48,895 nucleotides of DNA from Pseudomonadota bacterium (GTDB lineage Bacteria; Cyanobacteriota; Vampirovibrionia; Obscuribacterales; Obscuribacteraceae). The notes under the pieces were generated by a model. It was given only the letters and a program-made list of their open reading frames with translations, ran no database searches and was not told the DNA's origin. Where the stretch lies: the NCBI GenBank assembly GCA_021324135.1, contig JAJPJO010000152.1, positions 1 through 48,895 on the forward strand. Direction: 5' to 3'. This document shows positions 4,900-8,785 of the stretch, piece after piece; positions within the stretch are counted from its first letter, which is position 1; the number at the start of each line of letters is the position of its first letter. Made by a program: the position numbers and the translations under genes.

Positions 4900-5205
4900 A
4901 TGACTTTTATGTATAACATCGATCCGAGCAAGCCTTACGACGGTCCGGAATTCGAAGAATATTGCATCAGCGAAGGCAAGTATCTTCCCGCCAGTCGAGA
5001 CCGGACTCCATGCATGACCTGTCCTCTCTTCAGCCTGTGCCAGCCGGGATTTGAGGAACAGGTGCGCCGGCTCCAAAACGGCGAGAATCCCAGCCTTACT
5101 GAAGGCTGTGCCTTTCCTGATGGAAGCCTGGATTCCGACAACCTTTTCGTTGGTCTTACTCAAGAACAAATCGACTTCGTCAAATCAAAAATCCCCGGCA
5201 TGTGA
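4900..5205 (+). CDS. Small Cys-rich acidic protein of the amber cassette
   Basis: No family recognised. The start at 4900 is chosen because AGAGGTG sits six bases upstream; the frame is open further upstream but without a ribosome site. The 101-aa product is acidic, lacks a signal peptide or membrane segment, and has five Cys: one near residue 20 (EEYC), three in TPCMTCPLFSLCQ and one in EGCAF. The CxxC-x5-C arrangement could bind zinc or an iron-sulfur cluster, but it may equally be a redox or scaffold protein. It is followed after 41 bases by the 61-aa peptide gene and thus appears to be the first gene of the 4900-8785 cassette. Ends in TGA. Confidence 0.65.
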   Translation: MTFMYNIDPSKPYDGPEFEEYCISEGKYLPASRDRTPCMTCPLFSLCQPGFEEQVRRLQNGENPSLTEGCAFPDGSLDSDNLFVGLTQEQIDFVKSKIPGM

Positions 5206-5246: not shown

Positions 5247-5432
5247 ATGAACAACAAAATAGCAGCCAATCAAAGTGGTATCACACCTGGTTTCGACGGT
5301 GCCCTCATCGGAAAGCAGCAACTCCTCATTAAGGCGAAGCTCAAAAAAGAATCAGCCCTGGTTGCAAAACAACAGCTGCATGTGAAAGCGGCATTGGCAT
5401 CTCAGCGCAAAACCGGCGGGTCGGGAAAATGA
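5247..5432 (+). CDS. 61-aa basic peptide with internal repeat
   Basis: A short gene with a strong AAAGGAG ribosome site eight bases before ATG, so it is very likely translated. The product is rich in Lys, Gln and Ala, has no Cys, and contains an imperfect duplication: GKQQLLIKAKL is followed 16 residues later by AKQQLHVKAAL. Its end overlaps the start of the desaturase-like gene as ATGA (5429-5432), indicating coupled translation. Possible roles are a carrier or substrate peptide for the neighbouring enzymes, an RNA-binding peptide, or a chaperone-like subunit; the sequence does not decide. It is too short for ordinary annotation but its ribosome site and gene overlap support it. Confidence 0.7.
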   Translation: MNNKIAANQSGITPGFDGALIGKQQLLIKAKLKKESALVAKQQLHVKAALASQRKTGGSGK

Positions 5433-6481
5433 TCGGCAAGCCCGAACTTGAGCTTTGCAGCTTGAGCAACGAGGCACCCGACCAGAGAGCGGCAATGAAC
5501 CCGGACTCGACAGTAGAGGACACACCTCAGCTTGTCACTATGCCTGCGCCTGTGCAGTTGCCGGCGGAGCTGTTGAGAAAAAGACCGCGCTTGTTCTGTC
5601 TTCGAATCGGTATCGCCTCGGCAATCATAGCGGCGACATCGACTTGCATGATGAGCGGTTCGGTGCTTCTGTTCGCTCTGGGAGCGGCCGTGCAGGGAGC
5701 CATGTACGTTCATCTCATAGAGCTTCAGCACTCAATCCTGCACAGGCAAGTTTTCGAATCTTCAAAGATCAACCGCATCCTCGGCTTCCTGCTGGGATTG
5801 CCCATGCTGATCAGTTATTCCGACTTTCAATACAAACATTTGAAGCACCACAAATACTTGGGCACCATGCGTAATACCGAAACATTTGTCTATCAGCGCC
5901 AAGAGTTGAACTCGATAGAAGGGTTTGTCAAATCGATGCTCGACTACTCGAGACTGATTACCGTGGCTAAGCGCATATCAGCTTCCTTCCTCGGCAGCGA
6001 TTGTGAACCCTGGCGATCCCAGATCTTCTGCGGAAATGCCGAGAGTGCGGATGAATATTCCTATACCAAAACAGGCGAAAAAATCAGGCGAGAGTATCAA
6101 CTGTTTGGATTGACCCTGGCAACCATCATTGCAATTTCAATCGTTTTTTCCAAACCCATGCTTTTGATACTGTGGATGGTGCCGCTCTTGATTGCGGAGC
6201 CCGTGCACTTCTTGCTTGAGCTTCCCGAGCATCTCGGGCTGCCGGCGCACTCCAACATCAACATATTTGAGAATACCCGCACCTGGGGCGGTTCCTGGTT
6301 TGCCCGCTGGTTCACTCACTACACAAATTTCCATATCGCCCATCATTATTGTCAATACGCGCCGATGGATAATCTGCCCCGCCTGCAGCCATTGATCGAC
6401 GGGAAGATACCGGCAACGTCGCGGAGCAGATCGTACCCCCATTTTTTCATGCAAGTAATCAGAGGTGAGATCGAGCCATGA
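5429..6481 (+). CDS. Membrane fatty-acid-desaturase-superfamily di-iron enzyme
   Basis: A 350-aa integral membrane oxygenase of the fatty acid desaturase/hydroxylase superfamily. Three histidine boxes are visible: HSILH (101-105), HLKHH (137-141) and HIAHH (302-306), with extra histidines at EPVHFLLELPEH (260, 268). Hydrophobic segments lie around 58-98, 117-130 and 223-258. Family members use O2 and a di-iron centre to desaturate or hydroxylate lipids, but also small metabolites and carrier-bound amino acids. It is coupled by ATGA overlaps to the 61-aa peptide upstream and to the LysRS paralogue downstream, so a role in making or modifying the amino acid handled by that synthetase is an attractive inference; the substrate cannot be read from the sequence. 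Ends in TGA. Confidence 0.8.
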   Translation: MIGKPELELCSLSNEAPDQRAAMNPDSTVEDTPQLVTMPAPVQLPAELLRKRPRLFCLRIGIASAIIAATSTCMMSGSVLLFALGAAVQGAMYVHLIELQHSILHRQVFESSKINRILGFLLGLPMLISYSDFQYKHLKHHKYLGTMRNTETFVYQRQELNSIEGFVKSMLDYSRLITVAKRISASFLGSDCEPWRSQIFCGNAESADEYSYTKTGEKIRREYQLFGLTLATIIAISIVFSKPMLLILWMVPLLIAEPVHFLLELPEHLGLPAHSNINIFENTRTWGGSWFARWFTHYTNFHIAHHYCQYAPMDNLPRLQPLIDGKIPATSRSRSYPHFFMQVIRGEIEP

Positions 6482-8103
6482 AGCAGAACAACAGCCTGCA
6501 TGCAGAAAAGCAGCGCAAACTTCAGGAATTGAAAGACCAGGGTGTGGTTACTTATGCTCATCGATTTCAAAGAACGCATACAGCTGCAGATGTCCTTGAT
6601 CGATACGATCATCTGGTCGCCGACGAGCAAGCCGCCGATCGAGTGAGAGTATGCGGGCGCATCATGCGCAAACGCTACAGCTGGAGGTTTGTTGATCTGG
6701 AAGATCAGTCAGGATCGATTCAGCTCATCTTTGAGGAAAACGTGATTGGCGCCCAGGCAGCCAAACGGCTGCGGCTGATGGATCGCGGCGATATTATCGG
6801 TGTTTGCGGCCGGCCGATGCGAACTCGCCAGGGACCGCCCTCCATCCTTGTTGAGGAGTGGGAAATCCTGGCCAAATCGATGCAACCAATTCCAGATGAT
6901 CCTGGCTTTCTTGCCGACCAGGAAGCTCGTTTTCGCCAGCGGCACCTCGATTTCATGCTCAACAAGCAGGCTCGGGAGATGCTGCTCAAGCGCGCCATGA
7001 CTGTGAAAACCATTCGCGCTTTCCTGGACGAGCGTGATTTCCTCGAGGCGGAAACGCCGATTCTCCACGAGCAAGCCGGTGGTGCCGAGGCAAGACCGTT
7101 TGTAACCCACCACAATGCCATGGATCGCGACATGTATATGCGCATCGCACCGGAATATTATCTCAGGCGCCTGCTCGTGGGCGGGTTTGAAAGGGTCTAT
7201 GAGATCGGACGCAATTTCCGCAACGAAGGCATGAGCCCTCGCCACAATCCAGAATTTACTTCCCTGGAGATGTTTCAAGCATATGGCGACTACAACGACT
7301 TGATGGAGCTGACTGAGATGATGCTGAATCAGGTCGTCAATCGAGTCTGCAAGTCGAGCAAGGTTATGCATCAAGGAATCGAGCTTGATTTCAGCTTGCC
7401 GTTTGCCCGCTGCACGATGACAGCTGCGATAAAAGATACCTGCGGATTGGATGTTGATGCGTATGAGACCGTTGATCAGTTGCGTCTCGCCGCCACCGCC
7501 GTCGGTGCCGAGCTGGACGATCAGAAAACTCGCGGAGAAATAATCAATGCCATCTTCGAGCAGAAAGTGCAGGAGACTTTGATGCAACCTACATTCATCA
7601 TCGATTATCCGGTCGAGGTTTCTGTGTGCCAGCACCGCCACCCCAACAAACCCGGCTTTGTCGAGCGCTTCGAGCTGTTTGTCTATGGCCGTGAGTTAGC
7701 CAACGGCTGCAGCGAATTGAATGATCCCGAAGAACAAAGACGGCGCTTTGCTTACCAGCAAGAAAAACGCGCTGAGGGTCATGATGAGCTGCCCGGACCG
7801 GACGCCGATTTCGTTTATGCCATGGAATTTGGCATGCCGCCAATGATGGGTCTGGGTGTCGGCATCGACCGTCTAGTCATGTTGCTCGTCGATGCAGCCA
7901 GCATCAAGGACGTGATCGCATTCCCAAGCATGAAACCAATTGCAAACTCGCGAGGCAGCACCGCTCGTGGTGCGCTCAAAGAAGTCACAGGCGCACCTGC
8001 CTCGAGCGACATGATCACCAGCGAGGCTGAGCAAAAAATGTCCTTTACACCAGTTATTCCGATCCAAGCCGGATCACCCATTTACTCAAAAGGAGGAAAA
8101 TAA
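6478..8103 (+). CDS. Class II lysyl-tRNA synthetase paralogue with altered pocket
   Basis: A 541-aa class IIb LysRS-like enzyme: N-terminal OB-fold anticodon domain (about 50-140), motif 2 with GRNFRNEG (Arg248) and motif 3 GLGVGIDRLVML (458-469). By eye against E. coli LysRS, Glu240, Glu278, Asn424 and Glu428 are kept (Glu226, Glu264, Asn409, Glu413 here), but Tyr280 is Phe266 and Phe426 is Cys411, both in the lysine side-chain pocket. The usual VSPLA[KR] segment is VSVCQH (381-386). The OB-fold loop normally containing GKASF is shortened to YSWRF. A tail of about 50 residues beyond the usual end is added. GAGGTGA lies nine bases before ATG, which overlaps the upstream stop (ATGA). The nearby tRNA-CUA is the likely partner; a housekeeping LysRS gone divergent is the alternative. 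Confidence 0.9.
   Translation: MKQNNSLHAEKQRKLQELKDQGVVTYAHRFQRTHTAADVLDRYDHLVADEQAADRVRVCGRIMRKRYSWRFVDLEDQSGSIQLIFEENVIGAQAAKRLRLMDRGDIIGVCGRPMRTRQGPPSILVEEWEILAKSMQPIPDDPGFLADQEARFRQRHLDFMLNKQAREMLLKRAMTVKTIRAFLDERDFLEAETPILHEQAGGAEARPFVTHHNAMDRDMYMRIAPEYYLRRLLVGGFERVYEIGRNFRNEGMSPRHNPEFTSLEMFQAYGDYNDLMELTEMMLNQVVNRVCKSSKVMHQGIELDFSLPFARCTMTAAIKDTCGLDVDAYETVDQLRLAATAVGAELDDQKTRGEIINAIFEQKVQETLMQPTFIIDYPVEVSVCQHRHPNKPGFVERFELFVYGRELANGCSELNDPEEQRRRFAYQQEKRAEGHDELPGPDADFVYAMEFGMPPMMGLGVGIDRLVMLLVDAASIKDVIAFPSMKPIANSRGSTARGALKEVTGAPASSDMITSEAEQKMSFTPVIPIQAGSPIYSKGGK
8091..8096 (+). promoter_or_regulatory. Strong Shine-Dalgarno for the amber-interrupted frame
   Basis: A perfect AGGAGG lies at the 3' end of the LysRS gene, 12 bases before ATG 8109. 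It is the only good ribosome site between LysRS and the tRNA: neither the ATG at 8238 nor any codon after 8474 has one. This decides that translation of the whole amber-interrupted frame should begin at 8109. Confidence 0.7.
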
Positions 8104-8108
8104 AAACC

Positions 8109-8672
8109 ATGGTAGAACTCGTACAACCCAATGAAATAACAAAGCCAAGTGCGGCTCAGAGCACTGATGCCCTGACCAAGTTTCTGCAGCAGGATTGCTA
8201 TGGGTAGGTAGACCGAACAAACCGCCCGTCCGACAACATGACAGTTACCTCAGACAGGCAGGGATCACTTCAACTCAATACCGGCGATACCTTCACACGT
8301 GCCAACGGCACTGAAAGCATCGTCACACCGCGAGGTGATGCAGGTGTTCTGCTCACCACCAGAGATGGACGAAGTACATTAATGCCTTTCGGCAATGCCA
8401 GAGTCGAAGTCGACGACGGCGACGGACAATTCAAACCGGTGAGCCCAAAGGACTATCCATGCGGATTCACGTAGATAGAAAGATATCGCGTCAGCCTACC
8501 GGATGGAACGGTAGTGACTGCCCAAGCATACAACGGAGGCAATGGCGTGCTGGGACGCTTTGAATCCGCATCATCCGGCAACCGAATCACCAGGTTCTCC
8601 GAGGCCCAGAAAGCCGTGCCCGAGAAATTGAAATCTCCAGGTAAGGGCTTTTAGACGAGCGCTAAGAAATAA
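8109..8672 (+). CDS. Amber-interrupted reading frame (three in-frame TAG codons)
   Basis: From ATG 8109 the same frame runs through TAG at 8205, TAG at 8472 and TAG at 8652 to TAA at 8670, with no other stop in 187 codons. The segments are 32, 88, 59 and 5 residues. The first begins MVELVQPNEITKP and ends QQDCYG; the second includes LQLNTGDTFTRANGTESIV and ends DYPCGFT; the third contains RYRVSLPDGTVVTAQAYNGG. Segments two and three look like ordinary soluble beta-rich protein, and neither has its own ribosome site. A CUA-anticodon tRNA lies 39 bases downstream, so TAG may be decoded as an amino acid here. Alternatives: a 32-aa peptide gene followed by a decayed gene, or a full stop at 8652. 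No family recognised. Confidence 0.7.
8205..8207 (+). other. In-frame TAG 1 (candidate recoded sense codon)
   Basis: Codon 33 of the frame starting at 8109, in the context DCYG-TAG-VDR. The bases TAGGTAGA (8205-8212) resemble the TAGATAGA at the second TAG. Would also be the stop of a 32-aa peptide if not decoded. Confidence 0.6.
8472..8474 (+). other. In-frame TAG 2 (candidate recoded sense codon)
   Basis: Codon 122 of the same frame, context PCGFT-TAG-IER. As at TAG 1, a Cys precedes by a few residues and a hydrophobic-acidic-Arg triplet follows. No start codon with a ribosome site exists after it, so the downstream 59 codons depend on read-through. Confidence 0.6.
8652..8654 (+). other. 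In-frame TAG 3 (stop or recoded codon)
   Basis: Codon 182 of the frame. It may be the true stop. If decoded, only TSAKK would be added before TAA at 8670-8672, which lies just before the hairpin at 8679-8706. Confidence 0.45.
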
Positions 8673-8678
8673 ATATCA

Positions 8679-8706
8679 GCGGCTGGTTGCAAGCCATTCC
8701 AGCCGC
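8679..8706 (+). promoter_or_regulatory. Stable hairpin immediately upstream of tRNA-CUA
   Basis: An 8-bp perfect GC-rich stem, GCGGCTGG (8679-8686) with CCAGCCGC (8699-8706), closes a 12-base loop and ends four A residues before the first base of the tRNA. There is no T-run on the plus strand. It could be a processing or punctuation element in a transcript shared by the amber-containing gene and the tRNA, or a rho-independent-like attenuator lacking a U-tract. Confidence 0.6.
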
Positions 8707-8710
8707 AAAA

Positions 8711-8785
8711 GGGTCATTAGCTCAACGGCAGAGCAGCTGCCTCTAAAGCAGAGGGATAAGAGTTCGAATCTCTTATGACCTACCA
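8711..8785 (+). tRNA. Amber-decoding tRNA, anticodon CUA, tRNA-Lys-like
   Basis: A complete cloverleaf with encoded CCA (8783-8785). Acceptor 8711-8717 pairs with 8775-8781 in seven pairs, the first being G1-U72. U8 and A9 follow. The D-stem GCTC/GAGC (8720-8723, 8731-8734) encloses a loop with A14, G18G19 and A21. The anticodon stem 8736-8740/8748-8752 has four pairs plus a G27-A43 mismatch; the loop CTCTAAA (8741-8747) puts CTA at 8743-8745 after U33 and before A37. The T-stem AAGAG/CTCTT is perfect with loop TTCGAAT; discriminator A73. The body (GGGTC..TTAGCTCA, AGAGCA, TTCGAATC, A73) resembles bacterial tRNA-Lys. The CUA anticodon reads UAG. It sits at the end of the cassette with the LysRS paralogue. 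Confidence 0.92.

What the first reader, a model, noticed from the sequence alone, without database searches (positions are those of the whole stretch)
8711..8785. A tRNA-Lys-like tRNA with a CUA (amber) anticodon
The cloverleaf is nearly complete, with encoded CCA, U33, A37, A73 and a perfect T-arm, and it has the general body of bacterial tRNA-Lys. The loop is CTCTAAA, so the anticodon is CUA and the tRNA should decode UAG. Deviations are a G1-U72 pair and a G27-A43 mismatch. Naturally encoded amber-decoding tRNAs of this type in bacteria are essentially known only from pyrrolysine systems, whose tRNA is very different. This appears to be an independent tRNA-Lys-derived amber decoder.
Basis: partly seen in the sequence, partly recalled or inferred. 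Interest (0 to 1): 0.97.

Follow-up and report, generated by a model that had tools for sequence, protein, structure and literature searches.

The report
Lysine-like amber (UAG) decoding cassette
In some uncultured relatives of cyanobacteria, an extra lysine tRNA that should read the UAG stop codon and an extra, altered lysyl-tRNA synthetase sit beside a gene interrupted by in-frame UAG codons, which points to a natural system, not described before as far as we could find, that reads a stop codon as an amino acid.

Summary
The tRNA is real: ARAGORN calls anticodon CUA at 8711-8785; Rfam scores it 64.9 bits. Its nearest relative among 71 tRNAs read from this genome is tRNA-Lys(CUU). It ends a run of five genes on one strand: small Cys protein, desaturase-like diiron protein, LysRS paralogue, ORF with three in-frame TAGs, tRNA. 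The genome also has another LysRS and RF1; TAG ends 119 of 401 long ORFs in a 594-kb sample. Five of 50 family genomes carry this LysRS clade. Four of the five have the CUA tRNA within 1.5 kb; 0 of 26 other LysRS loci scanned do. All four have a TAG-interrupted ORF between the two. Nine of its ten in-frame TAGs follow [FY][TG], and in three genomes the protein stays conserved beyond them. All five synthetases share changes in the lysine pocket and the anticodon-binding domain. Best reading: a dedicated LysRS/tRNA-CUA pair inserts lysine, or a lysine derivative, at UAG in the linked protein. Charging, expression and the amino acid are not shown. Three results do not fit neatly: one clade member lacks a detectable tRNA, and two lack the diiron gene.

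The parts
4900..5205 (+). Small conserved five-Cys protein (101 aa; the frame is open from 4603). Function unknown.
   Evidence: Seven homologues are 70-81% identical to the window copy; C22, C38, C41, C47 and C70 invariant in 8 of 8. Found in 5 of 5 genomes with the amber LysRS clade and in 3 of 45 others. No Pfam match at E 1.
5429..6481 (+). FA-desaturase-like diiron membrane protein; candidate lysine-modifying enzyme (inferred)
   Evidence: PF00487 117.6 bits. Best NCBIfam match is GntB, an L-arginine gamma-hydroxylase, far below its cut-off of 380 (40.3 bits here; 62.8 bits for the G041 copy). HxxxH, HxxHH, HxxHH in 3 of 3 homologues. At E 1e-20 found in 3 of 50 family genomes, all with the LysRS clade.
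6478..8103 (+). LysRS paralogue, class II; overlaps the preceding gene by 4 bp
   Evidence: TIGR00499 564.9 bits, cut-off 427.6. 55% identical to the other LysRS of the same genome. One of five on one side of a 100/100 branch, with shared pocket and OB-fold changes.
8091..8096 (+). Shine-Dalgarno AGGAGG before the TAG ORF
   Evidence: Read. The three related TAG ORFs also have a purine-rich SD-like stretch before their start codon.
8109..8672 (+). TAG-interrupted ORF, 187 aa, ends with TAA; proposed target protein
   Evidence: Three in-frame TAGs. Homologues beside the same LysRS in G034 and G014, E 6.5e-14 and 2.1e-12; the only stops inside these matches are TAG. G026 has a shorter version that shares the leader and the TAG motif.
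8205..8207 (+). TAG codon 1 (aa 33), context C-Y-G-TAG
   Evidence: Lies in the linker between leader and beta domain, as do the first TAGs of G014 and G034; the linkers differ in length and do not align column by column.
8472..8474 (+). TAG codon 2 (aa 122), context G-F-T-TAG (TTC ACG TAG)
   Evidence: Aligned with GFG-TAG in G014 and EYG-TAG in G034.
8652..8654 (+). TAG codon 3 (aa 182), context G-F-TAG; may be a true terminator
   Evidence: Window only, followed by TSAKK-TAA.
8679..8706 (+). Inverted repeat GCGGCTGG...CCAGCCGC between the TAG ORF and the tRNA; role unknown
   Evidence: Read directly; not tested further.
8711..8785 (+). tRNA with CUA anticodon, tRNA-Lys(CUU)-like, CCA encoded

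Best explanation
This is a dedicated amber-decoding cassette. A copy of tRNA-Lys(CUU) acquired anticodon CUA, and a duplicated LysRS evolved with it: it keeps the residues taken to be catalytic but has an altered OB-fold anticodon domain and an altered lysine pocket. The pair inserts lysine, or a lysine derivative, at UAG codons of the ORF that lies between the two genes, in competition with RF1. The product is a short conserved leader plus a beta-sheet domain, with UAG residues in the linker and in a loop. UAG stays a stop elsewhere, so the expansion is local, as recalled for pyrrolysine in Methanosarcina. The diiron protein is a candidate maker of a derivative. Shown by sequence: the tRNA and its kin, the LysRS clade and its shared changes, the linkage, the TAG sites and protein conservation across them. 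Inferred: charging, specificity, read-through, the amino acid, and the roles of the two upstream proteins.
For: CUA tRNA closest to tRNA-Lys(CUU). Another LysRS in the genome. LysRS clade in 5 of 50 family genomes; CUA tRNA beside it in 4 of 5 and beside 0 of 26 other LysRS loci scanned, a few of which are cut short by contig ends. A TAG ORF between LysRS and tRNA in all four, with SD-like stretch and start codon in 4 of 4. Nine of ten TAGs follow [FY][TG] (dropped from this count: one TAG upstream of the likely G014 start and three late TAGs of the G026 frame). Protein conserved beyond the first TAG, with mismatches by codon position 56/49/82 (G014-G034), 67/53/90 (window-G034), 67/60/88 (window-G014). 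LysRS changes in 5 of 5 against 26 others: Y266F, Y411C (2 of 26 others also have C), M262S, T225P, L227F/Y, H228Y/F; OB fold: T126E (23 of 26 others have T), K103R, T112R/K, R114M/I/V. In 50 genomes the diiron protein occurs in 3 of 5 clade carriers and 0 of 45 others, the small protein in 5 of 5 and 3 of 45; Fisher p 5e-4 and 3e-5, uncorrected for kinship.
Against: No expression or biochemical data. RF1 is present and TAG ends 119 of 401 long ORFs in the sample, so efficient suppression would be costly. G041 has the LysRS, diiron and small protein, but no CUA tRNA was found in 20 kb around them or by pattern in the genome, and no TAG ORF; it is about 70% complete. G014 and G034 (88% and 90% complete) lack the diiron protein at E 1e-20, so it is unlikely to be the sole maker of a required amino acid. 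In G014 and G026 the tRNA is on the strand opposite to the LysRS, so the genes are not one operon there. G034 LysRS has His for the conserved Asn at 409. Codon-usage scores do not set the TAG ORF apart: 27 frames of its kind in the sample for TAG, against 43 for TAA and 108 for TGA. No other target with the motif was seen among the 30 of 45 sites read.
Confidence: 0.84

Rival explanations
1. A narrower form of the best explanation: the pair inserts ordinary lysine. The cassette is a read-through switch or a fixed weak suppressor, and the altered LysRS pocket reflects drift or tuning, not a new substrate. (Its odds overlap with those of the best explanation, which leaves the amino acid open.)
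For: LysRS scores as a true LysRS and keeps the residues taken to be catalytic. The diiron protein was not found in G014 and G034, which have the rest of the cassette.
Against: 5 of 5 clade members share Phe at 266 (26 of 26 others have Tyr) and Cys at 411 (24 of 26 others have Tyr). A diiron protein closest to an amino-acid hydroxylase occurs only in clade carriers among 50 genomes. The TAGs sit in a recurring motif.
Confidence: 0.4
2. The LysRS paralogue and the small protein do something other than decode UAG (for example charge another tRNA or lysylate a protein); the tRNA and TAG ORF were added later in some lineages, or are side features.
For: G041 has LysRS, diiron and small protein with no CUA tRNA found. 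A second LysRS clade in G010 and G028 also has the small protein upstream but no tRNA within the fetched 20 kb.
Against: G041 belongs to the same clade and is only about 70% complete; in G026 the small and diiron genes lie on another contig than the LysRS, TAG ORF and tRNA, so a split is possible in G041 too. In the other four of five both tRNA and TAG ORF are present.
Confidence: 0.12
3. The TAG ORF is a decaying pseudogene and the CUA tRNA a chance mutant; the linkage is coincidental.
For: Codon-usage scores of the ORF are weak and such frames are common by chance. A LysRS remnant at G026:C76 shows that cassette genes can decay.
Against: A read-through search that tolerates any stop found only TAG inside the homologous ORFs of three genera. 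The second site aligns in three of them. Conservation continues past the TAGs, SD-like stretch and start are kept in 4 of 4, and the tRNA stands beside the same LysRS clade in four genomes.
Confidence: 0.03
4. A pyrrolysine (pyl) system or its relic.
For: ARAGORN labels the tRNA Pyl, from the anticodon alone. The LysRS has a weak match to PylS, 24.1 bits against a cut-off of 178.15.
Against: 0 of 5 clade genomes have a PylS match over the cut-off (weak class II matches of 22-26 bits in 3 of 5). The tRNA body is tRNA-Lys-like with a normal D arm. The synthetase is full-length LysRS with an OB-fold domain. pylB, pylC and pylD were not searched for.
Confidence: 0.01

Closest known systems
Pyrrolysine cassette (pylTSBCD) of methanogens and some bacteria
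   Same: A dedicated class II synthetase and CUA tRNA encoded together, few target genes with in-frame UAG, UAG still used as a stop (recalled, and in part in passages of PMC11363022).
   Different: The synthetase is not PylS and the tRNA is not tRNA-Pyl. The pair is closest to LysRS and tRNA-Lys(CUU); the target is not a methylamine methyltransferase.
Bacterial class II LysRS (TIGR00499) with tRNA-Lys(CUU)
   Same: Full-length fold, residues taken to be catalytic, tRNA body.
   Different: Clade-specific pocket and OB-fold changes, CUA anticodon, an extra copy beside another LysRS.
Phages that read UAG as an amino acid with suppressor tRNAs
   Same: A CUA tRNA reads UAG as sense.
   Different: Recalled: those change the code across a phage genome (usually to Gln) without a dedicated LysRS. 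A listing for phage phAss-1 (PMC10607447) was seen, no more. The tRNA pattern and the small protein were not found in viral contigs.
EF-P lysylation (EpmA/B/C)
   Same: A LysRS paralogue working with lysine-modifying enzymes (recalled).
   Different: The paralogue here keeps the OB-fold domain and is linked to a tRNA. The EpmA model scores 234.9 bits, below its cut-off of 286.9.
GntB-type FA-desaturase-like L-arginine hydroxylase
   Same: Best NCBIfam match of the diiron protein.
   Different: Far below the equivalog cut-off (62.8 against 380 bits); substrate unknown.

Membership tests
tRNA (RF00005) | Cloverleaf scoring above the gathering threshold | tested here: met
   64.9 bits against 29; ARAGORN cloverleaf.
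Amber-decoding tRNA of tRNA-Lys descent | CUA anticodon and closest kinship with tRNA-Lys | tested here: met
   Anticodon cta; nearest of 71 tRNAs is Lys(CUU).
Amber-decoding tRNA of tRNA-Lys descent | Actual charging and UAG decoding | not testable with these tools
   Needs biochemistry or mass spectrometry.
Bacterial class II LysRS | LysRS equivalog score | tested here: met
   TIGR00499 564.9 against 427.6 bits.
Bacterial class II LysRS | Residues taken to be catalytic (assignment recalled from E. coli LysU) | tested here: met
   E226, R248, E264 and E413 kept in 5 of 5.
Bacterial class II LysRS | Usual lysine side-chain pocket (Tyr and aromatic; assignment recalled) | tested here: not met
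   F266 and C411 in 5 of 5; Y266 in 26 of 26 and Y411 in 24 of 26 others. N409 is His in G034.
Pyrrolysine system | PylS catalytic domain (TIGR02367) over cut-off | tested here: not met
   0 of 5 clade genomes over the cut-off; 1 of 14 control genomes over it.
Pyrrolysine system | tRNA-Pyl body (small D loop, long anticodon stem; recalled) | tested here: not met
   Four-pair D stem, seven-base D loop, tRNA-Lys-like body.
Pyrrolysine system | pylB, pylC, pylD biosynthesis genes | not tested
   No search was run for them.
Natural genetic code expansion cassette | In-frame UAG at conserved positions of a target gene | tested here: met
   Second TAG aligned in ORFs of three genera; first TAG in the linker of the same three; repeated motif in a fourth genome.
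Natural genetic code expansion cassette | Non-canonical amino acid inserted | not testable with these tools
   Indirect only: pocket changes and the diiron protein.
Genome-wide UAG reassignment | UAG no longer used as stop; RF1 lost | tested here: not met
   TAG ends 119 of 401 long ORFs in the sample; RF1 479 bits, cut-off 423.25.

The most novel reading that the evidence does not exclude
A natural cassette that genetically encodes a further amino acid, a lysine derivative (for instance a hydroxylysine made by the diiron protein). It is charged by a LysRS paralogue with a remodelled pocket onto a tRNA-Lys-derived CUA tRNA and inserted at [FY][TG]-UAG motifs of one small protein family. It would have arisen independently of pyrrolysine and is so far seen in three genera of one family of Obscuribacterales.
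Probability: 0.45. Interest if true: 0.99.

Novelty: categorically new. Interest (0 to 1): 0.95.

Why it matters
Pyrrolysine is, to my knowledge (recalled), the only natural case of a dedicated synthetase and amber tRNA. A second, independent case built from LysRS and tRNA-Lys would show how an expanded code can start: gene duplication and one anticodon change, with UAG still a stop elsewhere and one linked target gene. It would make the origin of code expansion testable in a simple cassette. It might also supply a new orthogonal pair and possibly a new amino acid.

Tried and rejected
Genome-wide reassignment of UAG: rejected. TAG ends 119 of 401 ORFs of at least 150 codons in 594 kb of this genome, 66 of 178 in 280 kb of G040, which lacks the system, and 28 of 92 in 141 kb of other carriers. 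The mean open stretch after TAG is 42.2 codons in this genome, against 23.0 after TAA and 35.6 after TGA; in G040 it is 43.0, 44.8 and 48.3. The excess over TAA was not tested further and I do not count it as evidence.

Other target genes: SSNTTCACGTAG occurs at 45 places in 8 genomes, against 141 for the reversed control. 30 of the 45 were fetched and judged by eye; only the known ORFs looked like read-through genes. 15 were not fetched, 2 of them in this genome. Other contexts were not searched.

RNA element after TAG: eight stretches folded, z-scores 0.51 to -1.35, nothing strong.

Structures: the small protein model is poor (mean pLDDT 48.5). The TAG ORF model (G034, TAG read as Lys) has mean pLDDT 62.4, with block means of 69-88 over residues 51-140. 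Foldseek gives no match at E 0.001; the best is the CPAP G-box at E 0.11. A TAG-free paralogue has a Tcp10_C match below its cut-off, 23.8 against 36 bits. No function is claimed from these.

Mobile origin: no relative of the small protein and no exact match to the tRNA pattern in viral contigs. In plasmids, 20 records match at 60-80% identity; the five rows listed lie in the LysRS part.

Small protein in 386 genomes drawn evenly from the phylum: 1 hit, the own genome.

Invalid scripts: searches (genes on the minus strand read wrongly; an extra record in a FASTA file) gave unusable LysRS comparisons; one search replaced them.

Searches, on pocket residues and the hydroxylase, gave nothing that I used.

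Full report
The observation. ARAGORN reports one tRNA in the window, at 8711-8785 on the plus strand, anticodon CTA, with CCA encoded. Rfam's tRNA model matches it at 64.9 bits. The label 'Pyl' follows from the anticodon.

Descent. RF00005 finds 74 tRNA matches in this 7.96-Mb, 574-contig genome. Of the 71 tRNAs that ARAGORN reports in the 42 stretches fetched, the closest to the CUA tRNA is tRNA-Lys(CUU) on contig C512. The first 41 bases differ at two positions, one of them position 36. That tRNA-Lys(CUU) stands beside tRNA-Arg(UCU) in 6 of 6 genomes looked at (G000, G014, G026, G034, G041, G040), so I take it as the housekeeping copy and the CUA tRNA as an extra one.

The neighbours. On the same strand, in order: a small protein with five Cys (4900-5205), an FA-desaturase-like diiron protein (5429-6481), a LysRS (6478-8103), an ORF with three in-frame TAGs ending in TAA (8109-8672), and the tRNA. 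The LysRS overlaps the diiron gene by 4 bp. The TAG ORF starts 5 bp after the LysRS stop codon, behind AGGAGG.

The synthetase is a paralogue. The genome holds another LysRS on C196, 55% identical. In 50 genomes of the family, four others carry relatives at 58-62% identity: G014, G026, G034 and G041. The first three also carry a second LysRS at 50-53%. The five fall on one side of a 100/100 branch against 26 other LysRS; the tree is unrooted and the window protein has a long branch. Of 31 LysRS loci scanned, the CUA tRNA appears within about 1.5 kb in four, all of this clade. It does not appear beside the fifth member, G041, nor beside the 26 others, a few of which are cut short by contig ends. 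A 20-kb stretch around the G041 gene also has none, and a pattern search of the 50 genomes found the CUA form only in the same four. G026, G034 and G041 belong to one genus; the window and G014 to two others.

The synthetase is altered in the pocket and the anticodon domain. Compared with 26 other LysRS, all five share Phe for Tyr at 266, Cys for Tyr at 411 (two of the 26 also have Cys), Ser for Met at 262, Pro for Thr at 225, and changes at 227 and 228. In the OB-fold domain they share Glu at 126 (23 of 26 others have Thr), and changes at 103, 112 and 114. By alignment to a solved LysRS (3a74), 266 and 411 match Tyr and Phe. That these line the lysine side chain is recalled; a paper search for those residues found nothing. 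E226, R248, E264 and E413 are kept in 5 of 5; Asn 409 is His in G034.

The TAG ORF. Homologues lie between LysRS and tRNA in G034 (E 6.5e-14) and G014 (E 2.1e-12), and the only stops inside these matches are TAG. G026 has a shorter one that shares the leader (FVQxLLP) and a repeated PPFT-TAG-GSP unit. All four have an SD-like stretch and a start codon. The contexts are CYG, GFT and GF (window), PYT and GFG (G014), GFT and EYG (G034), and GFT and PPFT twice (G026): nine of ten end in [FY][TG]. Left out of this count are one TAG upstream of the likely GTG start of G014 and three late TAGs of the G026 frame. The latter frame runs RR-TAG-S-TAG into a hairpin, so those may be true stops. The second site aligns in three genomes; the first lies in a linker of varying length. 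After the first TAG, mismatches by codon position are 56/49/82 (G014-G034), 67/53/90 (window-G034) and 67/60/88 (window-G014). Among identical residues, 37 of 55, 28 of 44 and 31 of 49 use different codons. The protein thus seems to be under selection beyond the stop codons.

In G014 and G026 the tRNA lies on the strand opposite to the LysRS, so co-transcription is not a shared feature.

UAG is still a stop. RF1 is present at 479 bits, and TAG ends 119 of 401 ORFs of at least 150 codons in 594 kb. No other read-through gene was seen in a limited search. The expansion looks local.

The other two genes. The diiron protein has the three His boxes in 3 of 3 homologues. Its best named match is the L-arginine gamma-hydroxylase GntB, far below the equivalog cut-off. 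It occurs in 3 of 50 family genomes, all of the clade. The small protein occurs in 8 of 50: the five of the clade, G010 and G028 upstream of a second, divergent LysRS clade, and G033 without a LysRS nearby. In the window all five parts lie within 4 kb; in none of the other four clade genomes were all five found together.

Against. G014 and G034 lack the diiron gene at E 1e-20. G041 lacks a detectable tRNA and TAG ORF. Codon-usage scores alone do not single out the TAG ORF: 27 such frames in the sample, against 43 for TAA and 108 for TGA. There is no expression evidence.

Spread and print. An exact-pattern scan of genome contigs (one genome for each of 84,980 species; the own genome may be left out) found 13 stretches. 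None of those ten has a LysRS in the stretch held. Five paper searches listed 0, 20 of 37, 5, 15 of 22 and 4 papers; none by its title or abstract start describes a LysRS/tRNA-Lys amber cassette. The library lacks most subscription papers and all bioRxiv preprints. From two papers I read passages found by search term: PMC8629427 says in its introduction that in bacteria all known changes reassign UGA; PMC11363022 treats pyrrolysine as the 22nd amino acid. Other papers were seen in listings only.

Verdict. A dedicated LysRS/tRNA-CUA pair that reads UAG in a linked target is well supported by comparative sequence. Whether it inserts lysine or a derivative is open. It works like the pyl cassette but is not a member of it. 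I rate it categorically new because neither synthetase, tRNA nor target belongs to a code-expansion system known to me; a stricter reader could call it a new variant of the pyl kind.

Noticed in passing
L188 (G010:C17) and L189 (G028:C16): A second, divergent LysRS clade (Cys at the 411 position, Tyr kept at 266) with the same small Cys protein about 400 bp upstream and no tRNA within the fetched 20 kb; its substrate tRNA is unknown.
   Followed up: partly
L130 8056-8253 (G026:C76): A LysRS remnant between the small protein and the diiron gene, while an intact LysRS with tRNA and TAG ORF lies on another contig; one copy seems to have decayed.
   Followed up: partly
L053-L060, L062, L063: Ten other stretches from other groups match the CUA-tRNA pattern. 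ARAGORN calls a CTA tRNA in eight of them; L054 reads as a four-base anticodon and in L062 the place is not called. No LysRS in any of these stretches.
   Followed up: partly
G000:C291:293-3066 and G000:C534:67-981 (L120, L115): Dense tRNA arrays: 19 tRNA matches on C291, several with low scores, and six on C534. They may be phage or plasmid arrays or contamination; not examined.
   Followed up: no
G033:C227:39374-39664 (L190): The small Cys protein without a LysRS in the fetched 20 kb.
   Followed up: partly
L048, L049, L050: TAG-free proteins in G026 and G041 resemble the beta domain of the TAG ORF; one has a weak Tcp10_C match below the cut-off.
   Followed up: partly
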